The notes below the pieces were generated by a model, which was not told the DNA's origin, made no database searches, and worked only from the letters and a program-made list of their open reading frames with translations. Below are positions 5,203 to 46,701 of a stretch of 64,000 nucleotides of DNA, piece by piece. Source of the stretch: Granulicatella elegans ATCC 700633 (GTDB taxonomy: Bacteria > Bacillota > Bacilli > Lactobacillales > Aerococcaceae). How positions within the stretch are numbered: position 1 is the stretch's first letter; the number at the start of each line of letters is the position of its first letter. The DNA lies in assembly GCF_000162475.2 (NCBI RefSeq), contig NZ_KI391971.1, positions 808,901-872,900 on the forward strand. Reading direction: 5' to 3'. Position numbers and translations under genes: made by a program.

Positions 5203-5259
5203 AACTCCAATTTCTAGATAGATTCTGTCTATTTAGAGGTTGGAGTTATTTGTATTTTT
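5203..5259 (+). terminator. Terminator after the toxin-antitoxin pair
   Basis: AACTCCAA pairs with TTGGAGTT, enclosing a second inner stem (TAGATAGA with TCTATTTA). A T-rich tract follows. Confidence 0.7.
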
Positions 5260-5353
5260 CTCTTTTCAAGCGCTAGTGGCTATGTTACAATCGTGTTGTT
5301 TATAGAACATAAACATTTAAAATTTAATAGACAACAAAGGAGTTAAAAACACC

Positions 5354-9887: not shown

Positions 9888-9919
9888 TTGACCGTGTACT
9901 ATGGTACATGGTTTATAAT
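9888..9919 (+). promoter_or_regulatory. mer operator-promoter
   Basis: TTGACC at 9888 and TATAAT at 9914 are 20 bp apart, the overlong spacer typical of MerR-controlled promoters. The spacer holds a dyad, GTGTAC-TATG-GTACAT, extended by CC and GG. MerR family members bind such a dyad and untwist the DNA when metal is bound. merR and merA are both downstream, so this is probably an autoregulated single promoter. Confidence 0.8.
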
Positions 9920-9938
9920 ATTCAGGGGGTGAAATAAG

Positions 9939-10331
9939 ATGATTTATCGCATTAGTGAGTTTGCAGATAAATGTGGAGTTAATAAAGAAACGATCAGATA
10001 TTACGAGCGAAAAAATTTATTACAAGAACCTCACCGAACGGAAGCTGGTTATCGGTTATATTCATATGATGACGTTAAGCGTGTTGGGTTTATTAAACGA
10101 ATACAGGAACTTGGTTTCTCTTTAAGCGAGATTTATAAAATACTTGGTGTTGTAGATAAAGATGAAGTTCGTTGTCAAGATATGTTCGAATTTGTTTCTA
10201 AAAAACAAAAGGAAGTGCAAAAACAAATAGAGGATTTAAAACGAATTGAAACTATGTTAGACGACTTAAAACAACGATGTCCAGATGAAAAGAAATTACA
10301 TTTGTGTCCAATAATAGAAATATTAACATGA
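9939..10331 (+). CDS. merR: Mercury-responsive regulator MerR
   Basis: 130 residues. An N-terminal winged helix ([20 protein letters not shown]) is followed by a long dimerisation helix. Cys79, Cys114 and Cys123 are at the positions used by Bacillus-type MerR to bind Hg(II) in a trigonal site. By family it represses and, with mercury, activates the promoter at 9888. RBS CAGGGGGTG. It lies 28 bp before merA and inside the ISL3 element, so it is a passenger gene. Confidence 0.92.
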
Positions 10332-10359
10332 GAGATTAATTAACGAAAGGAGCTTTTTT

Positions 10360-12000
10360 ATGAATAAATTTAAGGTAAACATTTCAGGAATGACTTGTAC
10401 GGGTTGTGAAAAACACGTAGAATCAGCACTTGAAAAGATAGGTGCTAAAAATATTGAGTCTAGTTATCGTCGTGGTGAAGCAGTATTTGAACTGCCCGAT
10501 GATATTGAGGTTGAAAGTGCAATAAAGGCGATTGATGAAGCAAATTACCAAGCCGGAGAAATTGAAGAAGTATCATCACTAGAAAACGTGGCGTTAATTA
10601 ATGAAGACAATTATGACCTTCTTATTATTGGTTCTGGTGCTGCTGCCTTTTCTTCGGCAATTAAAGCTATAGAATACGGTGCAAAAGTTGGAATGATTGA
10701 GCGTGGAACGGTTGGGGGAACCTGTGTGAATATTGGCTGTGTTCCGTCAAAAACTCTTCTTAGGGCAGGGGAAATCAATCATTTATCAAAAGACAATCCG
10801 TTTATAGGTTTACAAACATCCGCTGGAGAAGTGGATTTAGCTAGTTTAATCACGCAAAAGGATAAATTGGTGAGCGAACTTCGGAATCAAAAATATATGG
10901 ATTTAATTGATGAATATAATTTTGATTTAATTAAAGGTGAAGCAAAATTCGTTGATGCTAGTACGGTTGAGGTCAATGGGACAAAGTTATCTGCAAAACG
11001 CTTTTTAATTGCAACAGGTGCATCGCCTTCGTTGCCCCAAATTTCAGGACTTGAAAAAATGGACTATTTAACTAGTACAACACTTCTTGAGTTAAAGAAA
11101 ATACCAAAACGATTAACTGTAATTGGTTCAGGATACATTGGAATGGAACTTGGACAACTATTTCATCATTTAGGTTCAGAAATAACGCTTATGCAAAGAA
11201 GTGAGCGACTTTTAAAGGAGTATGATCCTGAGATTTCAGAGTCAGTTGAAAAAGCGTTAATTGAACAGGGTATAAACCTTGTCAAAGGGGCAACTTTTGA
11301 GCGTGTTGAACAAAGTGGAGAGATAAAAAGGGTTTACGTAACAGTAAATGGCAGTAGAGAAATCATTGAATCAGATCAGTTACTTGTTGCCACTGGAAGA
11401 AAACCAAATACGGATTCTTTAAATTTAAGTGCAGCAGGTGTTGAAACTGGAAAAAATAATGAAATCCTGATCAATGATTTTGGTCAAACAAGTAATGAAA
11501 AGATTTATGCAGCAGGAGATGTGACTTTAGGACCACAATTTGTATATGTAGCAGCCTATGAAGGTGGAATTATTACTGATAATGCTATTGGTGGATTAAA
11601 CAAAAAAATAGATTTATCGGTAGTTCCTGCTGTTACGTTTACGAATCCGACGGTTGCAACGGTTGGTTTAACAGAAGAACAAGCAAAAGAGAAAGGGTAT
11701 GATGTGAAGACATCTGTATTACCTTTAGATGCTGTTCCAAGAGCAATTGTAAACCGTGAAACAACCGGTGTATTTAAACTAGTAGCAGATGCAGAAACAC
11801 TAAAAGTATTAGGGGTTCATATTGTATCTGAAAATGCAGGAGATGTCATCTATGCAGCATCATTAGCTGTTAAATTGGGCTTAACGATAGAAGATTTAAC
11901 AGAAACCCTAGCACCATATTTAACAATGGCTGAAGGGCTAAAATTAGTTGCACTTACGTTCGATAAAGATATTTCGAAATTATCTTGTTGTGCAGGCTAA
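10360..12000 (+). CDS. merA: Mercury(II) reductase
   Basis: 546 residues. Residues 1-75 are a heavy-metal-associated domain with GMTCTGC. The FAD-binding fold starts at [11 protein letters not shown], the redox-active disulfide is in [12 protein letters not shown], and the NAD(P)H fold is at [12 protein letters not shown]. The C-terminus ends LSCCAG, whose Cys pair hands Hg(II) to the active site. It reduces Hg(II) to volatile Hg(0) with NADPH in the cytoplasm. No merT, merP or merB is present, so uptake must rely on other routes. RBS AAAGGAG. Full length and intact. Confidence 0.95.
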
Positions 12001-23514: not shown

Positions 23515-23759
23515 CAATTTCATAGGAAATCCAATGAAGGAGCTAAGTAGATTCACAGCAATTAGAGAGAGAAATCATGGCTGAAAGTTTCTCATAAAGA
23601 CTGAAAGAATTGAAAGACACTCTGGAGGAGAATAATGCAAAGTTATTCCGGCAAAGGAGCCGTTATTTAGTAGAGGAATAGAGGTAGCTCTATTCAAATT
23701 TAGGTGGTACCACGAAATAATCGTCCTGACTCATTCATTTGAGTCAGGATTTTTTTTTA
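23515..23759 (+). promoter_or_regulatory. T-box leader of hisS-aspS with terminator
   Basis: Contains AGAGAGA (the Stem I bulge motif), the T-box core TTTAGGTGGTACCACG at about 23698-23713, and a terminator (GTCCTGACTCA with TGAGTCAGGA, then T9) ending at 23759. Uncharged tRNA pairs with the core and blocks the terminator. The likely specifier region AAAGACACTC at 23613-23622 contains GAC (Asp, 23616-23618) and CAC (His, 23618-23620) overlapping by one base. The A after GAC fits the usual purine after a specifier. The 23414-23480 stretch before it holds nothing else I recognise. Confidence 0.93.
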
Positions 23760-29583: not shown

Positions 29584-30810
29584 ATGCCAAATCAATTAAT
29601 TGATCGTTTTATTCGTTATGTAAAAAAGGAAACTCGTTCAGATGAAGCAAGCACAACTGTTCCATCAACACCAAGTCAAACAGAGTTTTTAAAAGACTTA
29701 GTAGAAGAATTAGTAGAATTAGGATATCAAGATGTAAGATTAAATCCTAAAAATAGTTTCGTAACGGCAACAATTCCAGCTACAACTACAAAAGAAGTAC
29801 CAGTTGTTGGTTTTATTGCTCACGTAGATACAGCTGATTTTGAAGCTCGTAATGTACAACCTCAATTCCATGAAAATTATGATGGAGAAGCGATTGTATT
29901 AGATAAAGAAGGTAAATTTGTTTTATCTCCAAAAGATTTTCCAAATTTAAAAAATTATGTAGGGAAAACATTAATTACAACAGGTGGTACAACATTATTA
30001 GGAGCTGACGATAAAGCAGGTGTTAGTGAAATTGTTACTGCAGGTGCATACTTATTAGCTCATCCTGAAATCGAACACGGAAAAATTCGTGTAGCATTTG
30101 GTCCAGATGAAGAAATTGGACGTGGTGCTGATTTATTTGATGTGGAAGAATTTGGATGTGACTTTGCCTATACTATGGATGGAGGCCCAGTAGGAGAATT
30201 AGAATACGAAAGTTTCAATGCTGCTCAAGCTGAAATTACAATCCAAGGGAAAAATGTTCACCCAGGAACTGCAAAAGACACAATGGTAAATGCCTTAGAA
30301 ATTGCTCGACAATTTCAAAATGCTTTGCCTGAATTTGAAGTTCCAGAACATACTTCTGGTCGTGAAGGATTCTATCACTTAATGTATGCTAATGGTGTTG
30401 TTGAAGAAGCAAAATTAGTTTATATTATTCGTGACCATGATCGTAAATTATTCGAAGCGAAAAAAGCTTATTTACAATTAGTTGCAGATCGACTAAACGC
30501 ATCATTAGATAGTAATCGCATTTCAATTGATATGAAAGATCAATATTACAATATGGCTGAAATCATTGAAAAAGACTTTAGAGCTGTTGAAGTTGCTCAA
30601 AAAGCAATGGAAAACTTATCCATTACGCCGATTATTGAACCAATTCGTGGTGGTACAGATGGTTCTAAAATTTCATTTATGGGCTTACCAACGCCAAACA
30701 TTTTTGCAGGCGGAGAAAACTTCCACGGACGATATGAATTCGTCGCTGTAGAATCAATGGAAAAAGCACGTGATGTCATTATTGAAATCGCACAATTACT
30801 AGCGAAATAA
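29584..30810 (+). CDS. pepT: Peptidase T (tripeptide aminopeptidase)
   Basis: 408 residues of the M20 zinc family. [11 protein letters not shown] holds the first metal ligand, [12 protein letters not shown] the bridging Asp, and [15 protein letters not shown] the catalytic Glu. [29 protein letters not shown] near the end gives further ligands. It removes the N-terminal residue of tripeptides in the cytoplasm. RBS AAAGTAGGA. The next 292 bp contain repeat copy 1 and the promoter of the two-component system. Confidence 0.95.
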
Positions 30811-30815
30811 TAATA

Positions 30816-30952
30816 TGGCTTTTCTTATAGTAGCTAAGGACGGCAGCAGCTTCGCAAAGCGAATCTCATGCCTAAAAATTGAGCCTAAGGCTCAATTTTT
30901 CCTACACTATAAGCCAATCTGGCTATAGTGCTAAAGCTACAGAGAAAAGCCA
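30816..30952 (+). repeat. Structured intergenic repeat, copy 1 (long form)
   Basis: Ends TGGCTTTTCT and AGAGAAAAGCCA pair, as do inner GTAGCT and AGCTAC. Inside are hairpin A (GGC-AGCAG-C, stem TTCGC/GCGAA, TCTCAT-GCC), hairpin B (AAAATTGAGCC/GGCTCAATTTT) and hairpin C (CACTATAAGCCA/TGGCTATAGTG). It is nearly identical to copy 2 at 35375-35510, which is in the opposite orientation. A TTTTGACG tail after it also occurs, in variant form, after copies 3 and 8. Confidence 0.85.
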
Positions 30953-31102
30953 ATTTTATTTTGACGAAAGTTTATGAGTGGACGTTTAAAACTGAGCTTT
31001 TAGTGGAAGGGTACACTATTTTGTGTTCACATAGTTTATTGTAGACTATTATTAAATTATGCTAGAATATGCTTGAAATATATTTTCAAAGGAGAGTCAA
31101 TT

Positions 31103-31774
31103 ATGAAATCTAAAGTTCTAGTCGTAGATGATGATATTGCTATTTTAAGACTTATTAAAAATGTTCTAGAGAGTAAAAACTTTGTTGTGGACACACGAAC
31201 TACTATTCCTGAAATTGATATCTGTCATTTTATCGGCTATGATTTAATTATTTTAGATATCATGATGCCCCACGATGGAATTGAAATCTGTAAGTATATC
31301 CGAGAATTTATTCCTGTTCCAATCATATTTTTAACAGCCAAAAATTTAGAAGAAGATATTGTATATGGAATACAGTCCGGTGCAGATGACTATATCACAA
31401 AACCATTTAGCATACCTGAACTAGTAGCTAGAGTACAGATGCATATCCGTCGAGAAGTACGCAATAATAATTCTAGTGAGATTCTACAATTTGGAGCACT
31501 GGCAATTGATAAAACGAAAGAAGAGCTTAGAATTGCGGATATACATATTCCCACTACAAAAAGAGAATTCCAATTAATTTTGTTACTCTCCAGCAATCCT
31601 AATAGAATATTTTCAAACGAAGAACTCTTTGATTATCTTTACCCTCATGATTCTGAAACTCAGGGGAGGTCAATTACAGAGTATGTATACCAAATCAGGC
31701 AAAAATTAAAACCTTATGAAATTAATCCAATTAAAACAATCTGGGGAGGTGGTTATCAGTGGATAACGCTCTGA
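31103..31774 (+). CDS. OmpR-family response regulator
   Basis: About 223 residues. Receiver domain: acidic pair in VVDDDIA, phospho-acceptor Asp in LIILDIMMP, Thr in FLTAKN and Lys in DDYITKPF. A winged-helix domain follows, ending ITEYVYQIRQKLKPYEINPIKTIWGGGYQW. By position it should control the ABC genes at 33106-35303. Start ATG 31103 with AAGGAGAG. It overlaps the kinase gene by 16 bp. Confidence 0.92.
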   Translation: MKSKVLVVDDDIAILRLIKNVLESKNFVVDTRTTIPEIDICHFIGYDLIILDIMMPHDGIEICKYIREFIPVPIIFLTAKNLEEDIVYGIQSGADDYITKPFSIPELVARVQMHIRREVRNNNSSEILQFGALAIDKTKEELRIADIHIPTTKREFQLILLLSSNPNRIFSNEELFDYLYPHDSETQGRSITEYVYQIRQKLKPYEINPIKTIWGGGYQWITL

Positions 31775-32835
31775 CTTTTAACCAACTGATTAGACAAACA
31801 TACTTTAAAATTTTAAGACAATTTCTTATTAGTCTTTTTCTATTTTATTTTCTACCAATGTTATTTACTGCATTTACTAATATTACTGAAAAAAATGCAG
31901 GGGCATTTACCATTTATTTTAGCACGATTTCTTGGATTTATATTAGTCTTATTTTGTTTTCTATTATTGCTAAAAATATTAGCAATCTTTTAGAAAAGAT
32001 AAAGCAAGAAACAAATATTGTTTATAATCAAAGCCTACTTGGGGATATAAATGAACAATCCTCAGCTAAGTTAACTTTAATTGAACTGATTGAAACAAGA
32101 CAAAAAATTCAGGAAATGCAGTCAACGATTAAAAAAATGATTCAATCTGAAAAACAGCAAAAAAAGGAATTGATGTTTCAAGTCTCAGCTGCAGCGCATG
32201 ATTTGAAGACACCTTTAACAATTATTCAAGGAAATGCTCAATTTTTACAATCTATGGACATCACTGGAAATATTGGTCAATGTTTAGGAGATATCGAACT
32301 TGCTAGCCAACAACTTAATAAATACTTTAACCAACTAATCAATTATTCTAAAACATTCTATAATGATACTTCCAATTGGGAGAGTTTCTCATCGGATTAC
32401 TTAGTTGAATTATTTGAACAAGAAATTAAGTTACGTACTGACAAAAAGGCTAAAATCCAAATTTCAAATAACCTACCAATCCCTATTAATTTAACACTTA
32501 ATTTAAACTTATTTTTACGAGCTATCCTAAATATTATCAATAATGCAATTGACCATTCCATAAGTAATTATCCAGTCATAAGAATAGACTATCAGTTAAT
32601 GGATAATAAATTTTTTATTTCTATATGGAATAGCGATTCCTCATTTTCGGAGAATATACTTGAAAAATATGGCTTACTTTTCTATCAAGATAATCAGGAA
32701 ACAAATTTAGAACAAGGAAATCATTTCGGAATTGGATTAGCATTTGTTAATCGGGTAGCGAAAATTCATGGTGGAGAAGTGAAGTTGAGTAATTTTGAGA
32801 ATGGTGCTCTTGTCACTATTTCTATACCAGTCTAG
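31759..32835 (+). CDS. Sensor histidine kinase
   Basis: 358 residues starting at GTG 31759, with GGGGAGGTGG upstream. Two membrane segments (about residues 20-75) are joined by a very short external loop, the plan of intramembrane-sensing kinases that detect cell-envelope stress or peptides with an ABC partner. The H box is SAAAHDLKTPLTIIQG. The N box is INNAIDHS and the G box GIGLAFVNRVAKIHGG. It phosphorylates the regulator encoded before it. Confidence 0.9.
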   Translation: MDNALTFNQLIRQTYFKILRQFLISLFLFYFLPMLFTAFTNITEKNAGAFTIYFSTISWIYISLILFSIIAKNISNLLEKIKQETNIVYNQSLLGDINEQSSAKLTLIELIETRQKIQEMQSTIKKMIQSEKQQKKELMFQVSAAAHDLKTPLTIIQGNAQFLQSMDITGNIGQCLGDIELASQQLNKYFNQLINYSKTFYNDTSNWESFSSDYLVELFEQEIKLRTDKKAKIQISNNLPIPINLTLNLNLFLRAILNIINNAIDHSISNYPVIRIDYQLMDNKFFISIWNSDSSFSENILEKYGLLFYQDNQETNLEQGNHFGIGLAFVNRVAKIHGGEVKLSNFENGALVTISIPV

Positions 32836-32886
32836 TCTTTAGTTTTCAACTATGATAATCTTCAAACTTTAAATTAATAACTACTT

Positions 32887-32916
32887 TCGTCATCTTGTTT
32901 AAGGTGGCGATTTTTT
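32887..32916 (+). terminator. Terminator after two-component genes
   Basis: TCGTCATCTT pairs with AAGGTGGCGA (two G-U pairs) over a GTTT loop, then T6. Confidence 0.75.
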
Positions 32917-32957
32917 ATTGGGTTGATTTACTTTTATATCTATTTCTATGATAAGAA

Positions 32958-32992
32958 TTTCTGATATTTTTCTGATATTTATTTTGTATAAC
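32958..32992 (+). promoter_or_regulatory. Probable response-regulator operator and promoter of ABC operon
   Basis: TTTCTGATATT occurs twice in perfect tandem (32958-32968 and 32969-32979), an 11-bp period expected for side-by-side OmpR-type subunits. TATAAC at 32987-32992 serves as -10, so the repeats cover the -35 region. This is typical of a promoter activated by a phosphorylated regulator. A long leader with an AT repeat (33009-33022) follows to the ATG at 33106. Confidence 0.6.
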
Positions 32993-33105
32993 AAGAAGTG
33001 TAGACGACATATATATATATATGGAATTTGATGGTATACCAATTGATAAAGAGATAAATTTATTTAAGTCTCAAAAATTATATTTGTAAAAGGTGGAAAA
33101 GATAA

Positions 33106-33804
33106 ATGATACAATTTGAGAAAATTAGCAAAGGTTTTATTAGTAAGAGTGTTCTTTCAGAAGTTTCGTTTACGGCAAAAGAGGGAGAAATAACGGCACT
33201 AATTGGTCCAAATGGGTCTGGTAAATCGACTTTAATAAAAATATTACTAGGTTTGATTTCCCCAGATGAAGGCAGAGCGACTTTTGATGGAAAAAGTTAT
33301 GAAGAATTAGGTAAATACCCCTTTAGATATGTAGGTGCATTTTTAGATAGTTTTCAACCAAATCCAACAAGGACAGCCTATAGTCACTTAAGGTGGATTG
33401 CTTTAACTAGTGGTATAGATAAGAAGAGATGTTTAGAATGTTTAAAATTAGTTGGTCTTCATGATGTTGGTAATAAAAGGATAAAAGACTACTCCCTTGG
33501 AATGAAACAAAGATTGGGGCTGGCTACGGCTATTTTAGCGAATCCTAAAATACTTATTTTGGATGAACCCATTAATGGACTCGATCCAGATGGAATTAGA
33601 TGGGTTAGAGAGTTTCTAAGAGAATTTGTTAGAGGCGGTAAAATAGTTTTAATCACAAGTCATTATATGAATGAATTAGAACTTACAGTTGATAAAATTG
33701 TAGGATTATCAAATGGTAAGATAGTAATTGATGGTAGTAGCAAAGATGTTCTTGAAGAATATGGCTCTTTTGAGGAAGCCTATTTTAAATCTGTTATAAA
33801 TTAA
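33106..33804 (+). CDS. Lantibiotic/bacitracin-resistance-type ABC ATPase
   Basis: 232 residues. Walker A GPNGSGKST, signature SLGMKQRLG, Walker B ILILDEPINGLDPDGI, H-loop ITSHYMNE. The sequence FLDSFQPNPTRTAYSHLRW after Walker A is typical of the BcrA/LanF group, which protects cells from membrane-active peptides. It heads a three-gene operon with two permeases, downstream of a dedicated two-component system. RBS AGGTGG. Confidence 0.87.
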   Translation: MIQFEKISKGFISKSVLSEVSFTAKEGEITALIGPNGSGKSTLIKILLGLISPDEGRATFDGKSYEELGKYPFRYVGAFLDSFQPNPTRTAYSHLRWIALTSGIDKKRCLECLKLVGLHDVGNKRIKDYSLGMKQRLGLATAILANPKILILDEPINGLDPDGIRWVREFLREFVRGGKIVLITSHYMNELELTVDKIVGLSNGKIVIDGSSKDVLEEYGSFEEAYFKSVIN

Positions 33805-33820
33805 AGGGGGGTAAACTTTT

Positions 33821-34621
33821 ATGAAAAATATAAGTAGTGAATTATACAAAATATTCTCATTGCCACTCTTTTGGAGGGGAGTAGCAATTTTGATTGGAAT
33901 CAGTGTATTCTTTACCTTTCAAAATATTCAAGTAATTAATGCGATAGCAAATGGGAATACAGAAATTCTTATACTAGAAGATACGACTAGTCAATTAACA
34001 GAGTTTCAAACAGTAAGAGATGCGATATTATCTTCTCCTTACCAATCTAGTATATTATTTTTTCCAATCTTATTTGCACTGATTCTATCTACGGAGTATA
34101 AATTTGGACAGGAATCATTTACTAAATTATTAACACCAAAATGGCAGACAGTTTTAACAGGTCAGATTTGTTCTGGAATAATTGTATCTAGTATATTGAC
34201 GGTTGTTCTATCTTTAATAAATAGTGCGATGCTCTATGCAATGTTAGATGAAACATTACAAAATTATCTTAACTTAGGTCTTGTTTTAGAAGTAACGTTA
34301 AGAATTATTATCTTTTCCATAACACTGACATTACTTTCAATGTTTTTAGTAAAGATAACAAGAAAGCCTATTCCGTCTGTCATTATTATTGTAAGTATTC
34401 TTGTTATAACTTTATCAGGCATATTGAGAATTGTTTCTCCGACGCTTGAAAATTTATTTCCTTTAACAGGTGCAAAGTCATTCGCATTTGGAAGAGTAGA
34501 AAATAACAATCCTTCAGAAATGTATGGTTTATTATTATTATTATCTCAAGCATCAATAGTAACTATAATGATGTATATTAAAGCTTGGTATAAAAATAAG
34601 AAGGAGAAGAAACATGGATGA
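33821..34621 (+). CDS. ABC-2 permease (LanE-like)
   Basis: 266 residues with six membrane segments. The early ELYKIFSLPLFWRG and EYKFGQESFTKLLTPKWQ segments fit ABC-2 permeases of the BcrB/LanE type. RBS AAAGGGGGG. It overlaps the next permease by 8 bp. Confidence 0.8.
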   Translation: MKNISSELYKIFSLPLFWRGVAILIGISVFFTFQNIQVINAIANGNTEILILEDTTSQLTEFQTVRDAILSSPYQSSILFFPILFALILSTEYKFGQESFTKLLTPKWQTVLTGQICSGIIVSSILTVVLSLINSAMLYAMLDETLQNYLNLGLVLEVTLRIIIFSITLTLLSMFLVKITRKPIPSVIIIVSILVITLSGILRIVSPTLENLFPLTGAKSFAFGRVENNNPSEMYGLLLLLSQASIVTIMMYIKAWYKNKKEKKHG

Positions 34622-35303
34622 AATGATATATGCTCTTATGTATAAAAAATATAGTTTAATTACTGTGAAAATACAAATTTTAAGTCAGTTATTGCTTACT
34701 TTATTTATCTGTATTCTTAGTTTAATAACATTTGAAATCAATGATAATGATATTATACTATCTAATAATCAAATTTTGGTAATTTCATCTTATTTATTTA
34801 TGATAGGCGGACTGATAAATGGCTCTATAGAAGTCGAGAATTCAGAATCTAAAATAGTCTATTTATTAACCGGAAACAAAAATAACAGTACACAAAAAAT
34901 TATGATTGTTGAGATAATAGACTGTGTATTACAAGCAATTCTATCATTGTTAGTTATCGTAAGTTTCTTCATTGTTAAAGGAACTATTAAGGAAGTTAGC
35001 TTAATACAGTTTTTCTCTTATCTTTTTAGTAGCATTTTGTGTTTCTTGATTGCATATTATTTAACTTTATTTTTTAAGAGTTCGATGACAGCATTAGCTA
35101 CTTTGTTACTATTTCCAATATTAGTTATTCCCTATATTGAACGTGTACTTCCTGTAGTATTACCATACATCTATTCTGAAGCTATTGCTGAAAGTTTCAA
35201 AATATCAGCAATGTCTTCTAGTCATATTCTATTATTATTATGGAATTTGATTTTACTCTTATTAATCTATTTGAAAGTCAAAAAGAGGTTGAAAAAGGAT
35301 TAG
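34614..35303 (+). CDS. ABC-2 permease (LanG-like)
   Basis: 229 residues with about six membrane segments and little sequence that can be recognised. It starts with GGAGAAG upstream and overlaps the previous permease. Together with 33106 and 33821 it forms an ATPase plus two permeases, the LanFEG layout. No lantibiotic synthesis gene is near, so it is more likely a resistance system than producer immunity. The 383 bp after it hold repeat copy 2 and a leader hairpin. Confidence 0.72.
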   Translation: MDEMIYALMYKKYSLITVKIQILSQLLLTLFICILSLITFEINDNDIILSNNQILVISSYLFMIGGLINGSIEVENSESKIVYLLTGNKNNSTQKIMIVEIIDCVLQAILSLLVIVSFFIVKGTIKEVSLIQFFSYLFSSILCFLIAYYLTLFFKSSMTALATLLLFPILVIPYIERVLPVVLPYIYSEAIAESFKISAMSSSHILLLLWNLILLLLIYLKVKKRLKKD

Positions 35304-35374
35304 TCGAAATATGTTATCTACAGTTGAAAATCCCATATTTATCGAAAATACATCAACATCTGACAAAATACAAA

Positions 35375-35510
35375 TGGCTTTTCTCTGTAGCTTTAGCACT
35401 ATAAGCCAGATGGGCTTATAGTGCAGGAAAAATTGAGACCTTAGGCTCAATTTTTAGGCATGAATCAGCAGAGCTGGTTGCTGCCGTCCTTAGCTACTGT
35501 AGGAAAGCCA
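35375..35510 (-). repeat. Structured intergenic repeat, copy 2 (long form, inverted)
   Basis: On the minus strand it reads TGGCTTTCCT to AGAGAAAAGCCA and matches copy 1 almost base for base, except in hairpin A. There the copy-1 stem TTCGC/GCGAA is replaced by CAGC/GCTG, so pairing is kept. Hairpins B (AAAATTGAG/CTCAATTTT) and C (CACTATAAGCC with GGCTTATAGTG) are present. With copy 1 it brackets 31103-35303 in inverted orientation. Confidence 0.85.
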
Positions 35511-35686: not shown

Positions 35687-37411
35687 ATGACATTTGACGG
35701 TTTATTTACAAAATGGATGACGGATGAAGTTTCTAAAGAAATTATTGGAGGGAGAATTAGTAAAATTCATCAGCCCCTCCCATATGAAATTCAATTAACC
35801 ATTCGCTCCAATCGTAAAAATTACTTACTATTATTATGTGCTCATCCCATGATGGCACGTTTCCAATTTATTACAGAAAAAGGGGATAATCCTGAAATTG
35901 CTCCTAATTTTTGTATGATTTTAAGAAAATACCTAGAAGGAGCGATTATTCAAGATTTTACTCAAGTTGGAGCTGACCGTATTATTCATTTAGACGTGGA
36001 TACAAGGGATGAACTTGGAGATGAAGCAAAATGGCGTTTGACACTTGAAATGATGGGAAAACATAGTAATGTTTTCTTAGTGGATCGAAGAAACCAGCAA
36101 ATTATTGATTGTTTAAAACGAATTCCATTAAGTCAAAATACTTATCGTACATTACAACCGGGTGCTACTTATCAATTACCTCCTCATCAAACAAAAATGA
36201 ACCCATTTGAAATGACGTTATTTGAACTAGATGCAAGATTAACAAAGGGATTAGGAGAAGATTCTCTTGCAAAATCATTAATGAGTCTTGTACAAGGGAT
36301 GAGTACATTAACAGCAAATGAAATTGTTGAACGTTCCATGATGTTTGATGAGACGATTGCTGAAAGTTTATGGAAGTTTTTAGAACAAAATAATGAAAAG
36401 CCAACACCTACCTTAGCAAAACTTTCGAATGGAAAAAGCTATTTTACAGTTTGTCCATATTATTCATTCCAAAATGCTGAAAATCAATCATTTGAAACAT
36501 TGTCTGAATTATTAACAGCCTATTATGTTCATAAAGTTCAGGAAGAAAAAATTCAACAGTTGGCGGGTAATTTACTTCAAATGTTGAAATCAGAATTGAA
36601 AAAAAATCGAGAAAAATTGGTTAAATTTGAAGAAGATTTACAAAAGAGTGAGAAAGCTGAACAATATCGTATTAAAGGGGAGTTATTAAATACTTGTCTG
36701 TACCAAATAGAAAAAGGTCAAACTGAAATTCAAGTGGAGAATTATTACGATAATAATGAATTACTAACGATTCAATTATCTACATGGTTGACACCTTCTC
36801 AAAATGCGCAAGCTTATTTTAAAAAATATCAGAAATTAAGAAATTCAATTGAACATATTGAAAAACAACAGGAAGTTACTCATCAAGAAATTCAATATTT
36901 AGAACAAGTACTATATCAAATTGAAGAAGCAGATGTGCAAAACTTAGAAATTATTCGCGAAGAATTAGTAGCAAGTGGTTACTTAAAGCGTTCCGCTATG
37001 AAAAAAGGAAAGCAAAAAATAAAACCTTCAAAACCATATGTTTTCTACTCAAATGATGGTACAAGAATTTTAGTGGGTAGAAATAATTTGCAAAATGATA
37101 CCTTAACATTAAAACAAGCCAAAAAAGAATATTTATGGTTACATGCGCAAAATATTCCTGGATCACACGTTATTGTAGAATCAGCAAATCCAACCGATGA
37201 AACGATTGGGCAAGCAGCGATGTTAGCAGCGTACTATTCTAAATATCGTCATTCAGCAACTGTTCCAGTGGACTATGTTTCTGTTTCAAAAATTAGAAAG
37301 CCAAATGGAGCTAAACCGGGATTTGTAGTGTATGAAGGACAACAAAATACGTATATCACTCCAGATGAAGCAGTGATTCAACAAATTCGGGAAAATAAAC
37401 CAAAAGAATAA
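35687..37411 (+). CDS. rqcH: Ribosome quality-control factor RqcH (FbpA/NEMF family)
   Basis: About 574 residues. The N-terminal NFACT-N domain has GGRISKIHQPLPYEIQLTIR. A coiled coil spans residues ~290-420. The NFACT-R domain carries YLWLHAQNIPGSHVIVE and the tail ends KPNGAKPGFVVYEGQQNTYITPDE. By family it binds obstructed 50S subunits and adds alanine tails to stalled chains. Older annotations call it fibronectin-binding protein. Start ATG 35687 with TGGAGGA. Confidence 0.92.
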   Translation: MTFDGLFTKWMTDEVSKEIIGGRISKIHQPLPYEIQLTIRSNRKNYLLLLCAHPMMARFQFITEKGDNPEIAPNFCMILRKYLEGAIIQDFTQVGADRIIHLDVDTRDELGDEAKWRLTLEMMGKHSNVFLVDRRNQQIIDCLKRIPLSQNTYRTLQPGATYQLPPHQTKMNPFEMTLFELDARLTKGLGEDSLAKSLMSLVQGMSTLTANEIVERSMMFDETIAESLWKFLEQNNEKPTPTLAKLSNGKSYFTVCPYYSFQNAENQSFETLSELLTAYYVHKVQEEKIQQLAGNLLQMLKSELKKNREKLVKFEEDLQKSEKAEQYRIKGELLNTCLYQIEKGQTEIQVENYYDNNELLTIQLSTWLTPSQNAQAYFKKYQKLRNSIEHIEKQQEVTHQEIQYLEQVLYQIEEADVQNLEIIREELVASGYLKRSAMKKGKQKIKPSKPYVFYSNDGTRILVGRNNLQNDTLTLKQAKKEYLWLHAQNIPGSHVIVESANPTDETIGQAAMLAAYYSKYRHSATVPVDYVSVSKIRKPNGAKPGFVVYEGQQNTYITPDEAVIQQIRENKPKE

Positions 37412-42692: not shown

Positions 42693-42846
42693 ATAGAAAT
42701 TGACTTTTCTTAAAGTAGTATTAGGACGCCAGTAGCCCCCTGTGGGGTCTCTTGGCTAAAATTTGAGCCTGTAGTCTCAAATTTTCCTGTACAAGAAGTA
42801 TAGAATACTTCTTGTACCCATACTACTCTGAAAAGTTTTTTCTATT
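42693..42846 (+). repeat. Structured intergenic repeat, copy 3 (long form)
   Basis: Ends ATAGAAATTGACTTTTC and the inverse GAAAAGTTTTTTCTAT pair, as do AGTAGTAT and ATACTACT. Hairpin A: GCCA-GTAGC-CCC/GGGG-TCTC-TTGGC. Hairpin B: AAATTTGAG/CTCAAATTT. Hairpin C: a perfect 13-bp inverted repeat starting GTACAAGAAGTAT. The 501-bp gap 42690-43190 otherwise holds copy 4, a terminator and the man leader. Confidence 0.8.
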
Positions 42847-46398: not shown

Positions 46399-46513
46399 TA
46401 ATGACTTCTAAAATAGTAGTAAGGGACGGAAGCAGCCTCGCATTTGCGAGTCTCATTCCCAATAAAAGTAGCCATTTAGGCTACTTTTATCATTACTACT
46501 ATGAGAAGTCATT
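46399..46513 (+). repeat. Structured intergenic repeat, copy 5
   Basis: Ends AATGACTTCT and AGAAGTCATT are perfect complements. Hairpin A: GGGACGGAAGCAGC, stem CTCGCA/TGCGAG, TCTCATTCC. One further hairpin, ATAAAAGTAGCC/GGCTACTTTTAT, takes the place of B and C. It is followed by a GTGGAGCATAGAGAG tail that recurs after copy 6. Confidence 0.8.
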
Positions 46514-46556
46514 GAGTGGTGGAGCATAGAGAGCCTCTGCGTTTATGATGTTATAT

Positions 46557-46639
46557 AATGACTTCTAAAATAGTAGTAAGGGGCGGAAGCAGCCTCGCAT
46601 TTGCAAGTTTCATCCCTAAAACTACTAAGACAAGTCATT
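46557..46639 (+). repeat. Structured intergenic repeat, copy 6 (short form, tandem with copy 5)
   Basis: Same left end AATGACTTCTAAAATAGTAG as copy 5, the same hairpin A with small changes, then directly the right end ACTACTAAGACAAGTCATT. Copy 6 lacks the second hairpin. Copies 5 and 6 with tails form a tandem duplication filling the gap 46389-46701. Confidence 0.8.
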
Positions 46640-46701
46640 GGTGTGTGGAGTATAGAGAGTCTGTACGGATAAAATTTTATTTATGATATATGGAGAAGAG
46701 T

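What the first reader, a model, noticed from the sequence alone, without database searches (positions are those of the whole stretch)
30816..35510. Two near-identical inverted repeat copies bracket a two-component/ABC resistance cassette
Copies 1 (+) and 2 (-) are almost the same length (137 and 136 bp) and far more alike than either is to other copies, including end sequences TGGCTTTTCT and AGAGAAAAGCCA. Between them lies a complete self-contained unit: regulator, kinase, terminator, operator, ATPase and two permeases. The arrangement resembles a composite element or a cassette that can invert or be exchanged by recombination between the repeats.
Basis: partly seen in the sequence, partly recalled or inferred. 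Interest (0 to 1): 0.7.

Follow-up and report, generated by a model that had tools for sequence, protein, structure and literature searches.

The report
Orphan lasso-peptide immunity island between repeats
Between two copies of a very common hairpin-forming repeat, this bacterium carries the leftover sensor-and-pump part of a lasso-peptide antibiotic gene cluster seen here in Streptococcus suis, with the antibiotic-making genes lost and only a scrap of one left behind.

Summary
The repeats are two of at least 118 copies in this genome of a four-helix, strongly covarying element found mostly near gene 3' ends, also present in 128 of 147 sampled genomes of a Streptococcus-like genus. The pair is therefore not specific to the cassette. 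The five genes are 85-95% identical in protein to regulatory and immunity genes of a lasso-peptide cluster in S. suis. Between promoter and ATPase the window keeps the last ~80 bp of the lasso B2 gene; behind the kinase it keeps a scrap of a relaxase gene. So the cassette is most likely the remains of a lasso cluster that once lay on a mobile element: precursor, cyclase, PqqD-like, most of B2 and exporter are gone, while sensor and pump are intact with low dN/dS. The nearest relative (G001) has pepT, one short repeat, rqcH and no cassette, with break points inside the repeats. That supports gain or loss with ends in the repeats; I could not tell which. I found no transposase in the cassette; inversion by the repeats could not be tested.

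The parts
30816..30952 (+). Repeat copy 1: four-helix element, begins 6 nt after the last base of the pepT stop codon
   Evidence: model R1 111.1 bits at 30823-30946
35375..35510 (-). Repeat copy 2, inverted
   Evidence: R1 111.1 bits at 35381-35504
30870..35487 (.). Stretch absent from the sister species G001 (indel unit: inner parts of both repeats plus cassette)
   Evidence: blastn of G001 stretch L087 against the window; sequence
31103..31774 (+). Response regulator (OmpR type), 95% aa identical to the S. suis lasso-cluster regulator
31759..32835 (+). Histidine kinase with two to three predicted membrane segments near its start
32840..32923 (-). Broken fragment of a relaxase C-terminal domain gene (two stops)
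   Evidence: tblastn of S. suis L043 relaxase piece (PF11083): 68% aa over 28 residues, E 5e-6; DNA match 83% over 104 nt
32887..32916 (+). Hairpin plus T run behind the kinase (terminator-like; lies inside the relaxase fragment)
   Evidence: fold -11.8 kcal/mol
32958..32979 (+). Operator: two 11-bp direct repeats, TCT-N8-TCT at 32960; conserved in front of the lasso precursor gene in S. suis
   Evidence: motif named for NisRK promoters in PMC9958725
33024..33105 (+). Relict 3' end of the lasso B2 (leader peptidase) gene, with a 1-nt gap in the alignment
   Evidence: 86-88% nt identical to L041-L043 at 5204-5291, E 2e-24 to 2e-25; B2 of S. suis named by NF033537
33106..33804 (+). ABC ATPase (immunity pump)
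33821..34621 (+). Permease 1
34614..35303 (+). Permease 2
29584..30810 (+). pepT (left neighbour)
   Evidence: TIGR01882 2.8e-190
35687..37411 (+). rqcH (right neighbour)
   Evidence: PF05833 4.5e-147
42708..42832 (+). Further copy of the repeat
   Evidence: R1 105.2 bits
46409..46505 (+). Further copy of the repeat, lacks one hairpin
   Evidence: R1 65.7 bits
56354..56476 (-). Further copy of the repeat
   Evidence: R1 114.8 bits
60400..60526 (+). Further copy of the repeat
   Evidence: R1 90.9 bits

Best explanation
The cassette is an orphan immunity island: the sensor (two-component system), its nisin-box-like operator and the three-gene ABC pump of a lasso-peptide cluster, kept after the peptide-making genes were lost. 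Proposed working: the kinase senses the lasso peptide of neighbours, the regulator binds the TCT-N8-TCT repeat at 32960, and the pump is switched on and clears the peptide from the membrane. Shown here: homology and gene order, relict B2 and relaxase scraps, conserved operator, intact reading frames with low dN/dS, absence from the six sampled congeners. Inferred: ligand, binding and pumping. The two flanking repeats belong to an abundant structured element of gene ends. They are most likely the sites at which the island was gained (by recombination between element copies on incoming DNA and a resident copy) or lost in the sister species, not a transposition or inversion machine.
For: S. suis L042 and L043 carry HK-RR divergent from precursor (42 aa), Asn_synthase-type cyclase, PqqD-like protein, B2 (NF033537 over cut-off), the same ATPase and permeases, and an exporter (domain scans on L042, L043 proteins 97% identical); DNA identity to the window 90-91% in two blocks. 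Window 32951-33008 matches the promoter of the S. suis precursor gene and 33024-33110 the B2 end, so about 2.76 kb is missing. In S. suis 10581 the cluster lies between a relaxase end and an integrase, and the window keeps a relaxase scrap. dN/dS is 0.10-0.28 for the five genes. Of 395 genomes of the order, 17 have permease 1; G000 is the only one outside genus g22. Of those 17, only G390 has B2. S. suis 2256 (L041) lost precursor, cyclase, PqqD and the front of B2 by a different deletion, exporter kept. Repeats: covariation score 0.395 versus at most 0.081 when slid, 37 of 47 pairs changed on both sides; 118 copies at E 1e-13; 44 of 45 classified intergenic copies lie in tandem or convergent gaps and 34 of 58 distances to a gene 3' end are 21 nt or less. 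Sister site: single short copy, no cassette.
Against: The 15 other g22 genomes with permease 1 lack lasso B2, so the module may in general serve other peptides, or the lasso cluster may have recruited an older resistance module. The low dN/dS is between two lineages and could in part reflect constraint on the S. suis side. The permease fold could not be confirmed (AlphaFold pLDDT 54; no PDB sequence match). The ATPase stays below the lantibiotic-protection cut-off. Polarity is unresolved: dS between G000 and G001 (0.318) equals dS between the G000 and S. suis cassettes (0.302-0.308). No strain-level data for this species.
Confidence: 0.76

Rival explanations
1. A composite or MITE-like mobile unit: the two inverted repeats act as ends and the island moves as one piece by a transposase acting in trans.
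For: Inverted, complete copies with inner parts 92% alike; indel ends inside the repeats.
Against: No transposase in the cassette; outer arms differ between loci and are not a fixed terminal repeat; at least 11 of 20 fetched G001 repeat loci share their site with G000, so much of the family is static; no target duplication seen by eye. The genome was not searched for a transposase that could act in trans.
Confidence: 0.08
2. Invertible cassette: homologous recombination between the inverted repeats flips the island and changes its expression.
For: Inverted orientation and about 80 nt of 92% identity.
Against: The island has its own promoter-like operator region inside, so flipping would hardly switch it; helix 1 differs; no orientation data.
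Confidence: 0.05
3. Ancestral island lost in G001: the common ancestor had both inverted copies and the island, and G001 is a deletion with its ends in the repeats.
For: The G001 site reads like the left part of copy 1 joined to the outer arm of copy 2 (TTGC-GCCGT then AGCTAC); short forms missing inner hairpins are seen at several loci; dS is compatible.
Against: The G001 copy can also be read as an ordinary short element with a 3-nt insertion; permease 1 is absent in the five other congeners too.
Confidence: 0.4
4. A general peptide-antibiotic resistance module (as in G027) that a lasso cluster recruited; its ligand in this bacterium need not be a lasso peptide.
For: 15 g22 genomes have permease 1 without B2; G027 has kinase, regulator and pump in the same divergent order with a CAAX-protease-family gene.
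Against: The window copy carries a B2 remnant and the lasso promoter, so this copy passed through a lasso cluster; permease 1 is 90% identical to the lasso version and only 46% to G027.
Confidence: 0.25

Closest known systems
Lasso-peptide biosynthetic cluster in Streptococcus suis (L042, L043; truncated in L041)
   Same: Regulator, kinase, operator, ATPase, two permeases; proteins 85-95% identical
   Different: Window lacks precursor, cyclase, PqqD, most of B2 and exporter; regulator-kinase block inverted; no integrase in the cassette
NisRK/NisFEG-type immunity; nseFEGRK orphan sets in S. equinus (PMC9958725; start of abstract in a listing, and passages)
   Same: Two-component system plus three-part ABC pump without peptide genes; TCT-N8-TCT operator
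   Different: Derived from a lasso cluster, not a lantibiotic one; found across genera; remnants of the lost genes still visible
Pneumococcal BOX elements (PMC3049150; abstract and passages seen)
   Same: Modular, hairpin-rich intergenic repeats with paired ends, many copies
   Different: R1 finds none of 12 loci holding a BOX-type sequence; different sequence; present outside streptococci
Rfam RF02616 SSRC8_2 (S. pyogenes sRNA, PMC3675131; passages seen)
   Same: Antisense strand of helices 1-2 matches model positions about 145-210
   Different: Only part of the model matches; 26.6-45.8 bits, below the gathering score 72

Membership tests
Orphan bacteriocin (lasso) immunity module | Immunity/regulation genes homologous to those of a peptide cluster | tested here: met
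   90-91% DNA identity to S. suis lasso cluster
Orphan bacteriocin (lasso) immunity module | No peptide-making genes nearby | tested here: met
   No lasso B2 match in G000 at E 0.001; only scraps in the window
Orphan bacteriocin (lasso) immunity module | Confers protection | not testable with these tools
   needs a bench test
Lasso-peptide biosynthetic cluster | Precursor, B1, B2 and C genes | tested here: not met
   tblastn of S. suis A, C, B1 against the window gave no hit at E 1; B2 gave only its end (11 aa, E 0.59), which the DNA match extends
LanFEG lantibiotic immunity | ATPase reaches the NCBIfam cut-off for lantibiotic protection (TIGR03740) | tested here: not met
   183.1 bits, cut-off 309.75
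NisRK regulon | TCT-N8-TCT box at the controlled promoter | tested here: met
   32960, conserved in L041-L043; 44 such words occur in the window on both strands, but TCTGA-N6-TCTGA only here
Composite transposon | Transposase carried by the ends or the unit | tested here: not met
Composite transposon | Target site duplication | tested here: inconclusive
   none evident by eye at 30816/35510; AT-rich flanks
Invertible (phase-variable) cassette | Both orientations found | not testable with these tools
   one genome of the species; no reads
BOX elements | Shared sequence/structure model | tested here: not met
   R1 0 of 12 BOX-holding loci
RF02616 SSRC8_2 | Reaches gathering score 72 | tested here: not met
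   26.6-45.8 bits
MITE | Terminal inverted repeats shared with an autonomous element, target duplications | tested here: inconclusive
   ends pair with each other but vary by locus; an autonomous partner was not searched for

The most novel reading that the evidence does not exclude
The repeat is a widespread, not yet classified four-helix element of gene 3' ends in Lactobacillales. Its palindromic arms let inverted copies recombine with a single resident copy, so that foreign islands such as this immunity cassette are swapped in and out at gene ends without a transposase.
Probability: 0.2. Interest if true: 0.72.

Novelty: new variant of a known kind. Interest (0 to 1): 0.48.

Why it matters
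It shows, with the scars still readable, how a peptide-antibiotic cluster on a mobile element can decay into a pure resistance island in another genus. That gives a testable prediction: this bacterium should resist the S. suis lasso peptide. It also points to a large, strongly covarying repeat family (at least 118 copies here; present in 128 of 147 sampled genomes of a Streptococcus-like genus) that Rfam matches only in part and below threshold, and whose function, perhaps gene-end processing or termination, is open.

Tried and rejected
AlphaFold model of permease 1 had pLDDT 54, so no fold search was made. A PDB profile search gave nothing. Plasmid and phage collections held no permease 1 homologue at E 1e-5. 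A regular-expression hunt for repeats returned mostly noise and was dropped in favour of BLAST anchors and the covariance model. I suspected a BOX element because both hold CGTCAGC; the model test did not bear that out.

Rows dropped and limits. From 89 anchored copies, 58 long forms were aligned and 5 odd ones removed, giving the 53 of alignment A1. All were found through similarity to copy 1 or 2, so the ranks refer to that subset. The structure counted was drawn by hand from copies 1 and 2. One search's controls do not model relatedness fully, and quasi-palindrome correction could imitate covariation. One search counted 142, 96 and 32 matches in G000, G001 and G027 at E 0.001, but such weak rows can be second, opposite-strand readings of the same element (seen); the stricter count is 118, 46 and 31 at E 1e-13, a lower bound since 150 candidates per genome were scored; one search scored 23 per genome. 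In one search (mechanical ORFs, no control for the genome's own mix of gaps) 9 of 59 elements overlapped an ORF of 80 aa or more and 5 lay at an edge; 45 were classified.

Polarity of the indel was tried by dS and stayed open (a first single-gene value, rqcH 0.43, pointed to gain in G000 and did not hold in the pool).

Literature: no paper on a S. suis lasso peptide was recognised from titles and abstract starts in two searches (20 of 28 papers listed, 15 of 35), and none on this repeat (10 of 13 listed; 4 of 4). (orphan immunity, 10 of 12 listed) was seen as a listing only. Papers outside the held library were not searched.
Full report
WHAT WAS CHECKED. The window lies in a 1.74-Mb single-contig genome (G000) of an unnamed genus whose order also holds a genus g22 with about 2-Mb genomes; g22 is very probably Streptococcus, because its member G390 has the closest match to the S. 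suis-type permease together with lasso B2. That naming is inference. The two repeats, their coordinates, orientation and the genes between pepT and rqcH are as reported. The claim that the two copies are far more alike than any other is too strong: overall identity 0.810 to each other, and copy 1 has 0.802 to a distant copy. Helices 2-3 plus right arm are 0.92 (rank 2 of 1378 pairs) and helix 1 is 0.58 (rank 1161).

THE REPEAT. A covariance model (R1) from 53 copies describes an outer stem with GTAGC...GCTAC, a first hairpin around GGACGCCAGCAG...CTCATGGC, a second AAATTTGAGCC...GGTCTCAAATTT, and a variable third. With a structure drawn by hand, 92.3% of cells pair; 37 of 47 pairs show changes on both sides; covariation score 0.395 against 0.045-0.081 for slid structures and 0.136 for shuffles. 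R1 finds 118 matches in G000, 46 in G001 and 31 in G027 of genus g22 at E 1e-13 (lower bounds); at E 0.001 the counts were 142, 96 and 32, with 2 weak ones each in congeners G002 and G005 and none in G003, G004, G006 and the more distant G037, but weak rows can be opposite-strand second readings. Of 147 g22 genomes sampled, 128 have it at E 1e-6. Of 59 G000 copies placed against mechanical ORFs, 9 overlapped an ORF and 5 were at an edge; of the other 45, 30 lay in tandem, 14 in convergent and 1 in divergent gaps, and 34 of 58 distances to a gene 3' end were 21 nt or less (no control for the genome's own mix of gaps). Copy 1 starts 6 nt after the last base of the pepT stop. In the 12 G027 copies read, loops vary while stems switch in step. 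The antisense strand of helices 1-2 matches part of Rfam RF02616 (positions about 145-210) below its gathering score, a family from a S. pyogenes sRNA study (PMC3675131, passages seen). It is not recognised as the pneumococcal BOX element: R1 finds none of 12 loci with BOX-type sequence. Several other inverted neighbours stand within about 1 kb of each other, too close for a cassette of this size (for example 500176+/500567-, 568979+/569304-, 984589+/984950-), so an inverted pair is nothing unusual here.

THE CASSETTE. A genome scan with permease 1 found three S. suis records at 90% protein identity. In L042 and L043 the genes stand in a complete lasso-peptide cluster: a 42-aa precursor, an asparagine-synthetase-like cyclase, a PqqD-like protein, a B2 leader peptidase (NF033537, 73.2 bits, cut-off 33, scanned in L042), the same ATPase and two permeases, and an exporter, with kinase and regulator divergent. 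The window matches in two blocks in opposite relative orientation. Its middle gap is a mosaic: 32840-32942 matches a relaxase gene next to the S. suis 10581 cluster, 32951-33008 the precursor promoter with its TCT-N8-TCT repeat, and 33024-33110 the end of B2. The window thus has the regulator block inverted and about 2.76 kb of biosynthetic genes removed, so that the precursor promoter now stands directly before the pump. S. suis 2256 (L041) has lost precursor, cyclase, PqqD and the front of B2 with a different break point, and keeps the exporter. The five window genes are intact; dN/dS against S. suis is RR 0.10, HK 0.12, ATPase 0.13, permease 1 0.17, permease 2 0.28. Permease 1 occurs in 17 of 395 genomes of the order, G000 being the only one outside g22 and the six sampled congeners lacking it. 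Of those 17 only G390 has lasso B2. The plasmid and phage collections gave no match.

MECHANISM. By analogy with NisRK-controlled nisFEG (operator TCT-N8-TCT; PMC9958725, passages seen), the kinase should sense the peptide and the regulator should turn on the pump. The same paper's abstract, as seen, reports 20 further S. [quoted passage not shown] Ligand, binding and pumping are inferred here. The ATPase resembles lantibiotic-protection ATPases but stays below that model's cut-off.

HOW THE ISLAND CAME TO LIE BETWEEN TWO REPEATS. In G001 the pepT-rqcH gap holds one short repeat, whose left part matches copy 1 (98% over 46 nt) and whose right arm and flank match the outer arm and flank of copy 2; the window stretch 30870-35487 is missing. 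So the difference between the two species has its ends inside the repeats. Two readings remain: gain in G000 by recombination of repeat-flanked incoming DNA with the resident copy, or loss in G001. Synonymous divergence does not decide: G000-G001 0.318 (0.275-0.367) over three flanking genes, cassette versus S. suis 0.302-0.308 (0.26-0.36). Of the 20 G001 repeat loci fetched, at least 11 map to the G000 repeat loci in hand, so much of the family is old and static. No transposase is present in the cassette, and inversion by the repeats could not be examined.

VERDICT. Observation largely right; interpretation partly right. The cassette is an orphan lasso-immunity island with its history still readable. 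The repeats belong to a large structured family and mark the indel's ends, but they are not evidence of a composite transposon or an invertible switch.

Noticed in passing
L042 2638-2766: Predicted lasso precursor of S. suis: 42 aa with a YQKP leader motif and a glycine-rich core start, ending in WPWL (one residue different in L043); core borders are inferred.
   Followed up: partly
L041 and L042, about 9894-11115 (-): In two S. suis strains the lasso cluster also lies close to pepT (one DUF5684 gene between), as the window cassette does; no homologous junction was found, so this may be coincidence.
   Followed up: partly
L043 35-421 and 10385-11599: In S. suis 10581 the lasso cluster is flanked by a relaxase C-terminal domain and a tyrosine integrase, as for cargo of an integrative mobilisable or conjugative element.
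   Followed up: partly
L110 3618-8801: G027 (genus g22) has a related kinase-regulator/pump set beside a CAAX-protease-family gene and no lasso B2.
   Followed up: no
window 46409-46681: Two tandem copies of the repeat, the first lacking one hairpin; forms lacking hairpins are seen at several other loci.
   Followed up: partly
L045/L082, L044/L083, L049/L085: Orthologous repeat copies in G000 and G001 differ in hairpin sequence while pairing is kept, although flanks are about 89-94% identical; template-switch correction or exchange between copies might drive this.
   Followed up: partly
window 23525-23731 (+): T-box leader (RF00230, 97 bits).
   Followed up: no
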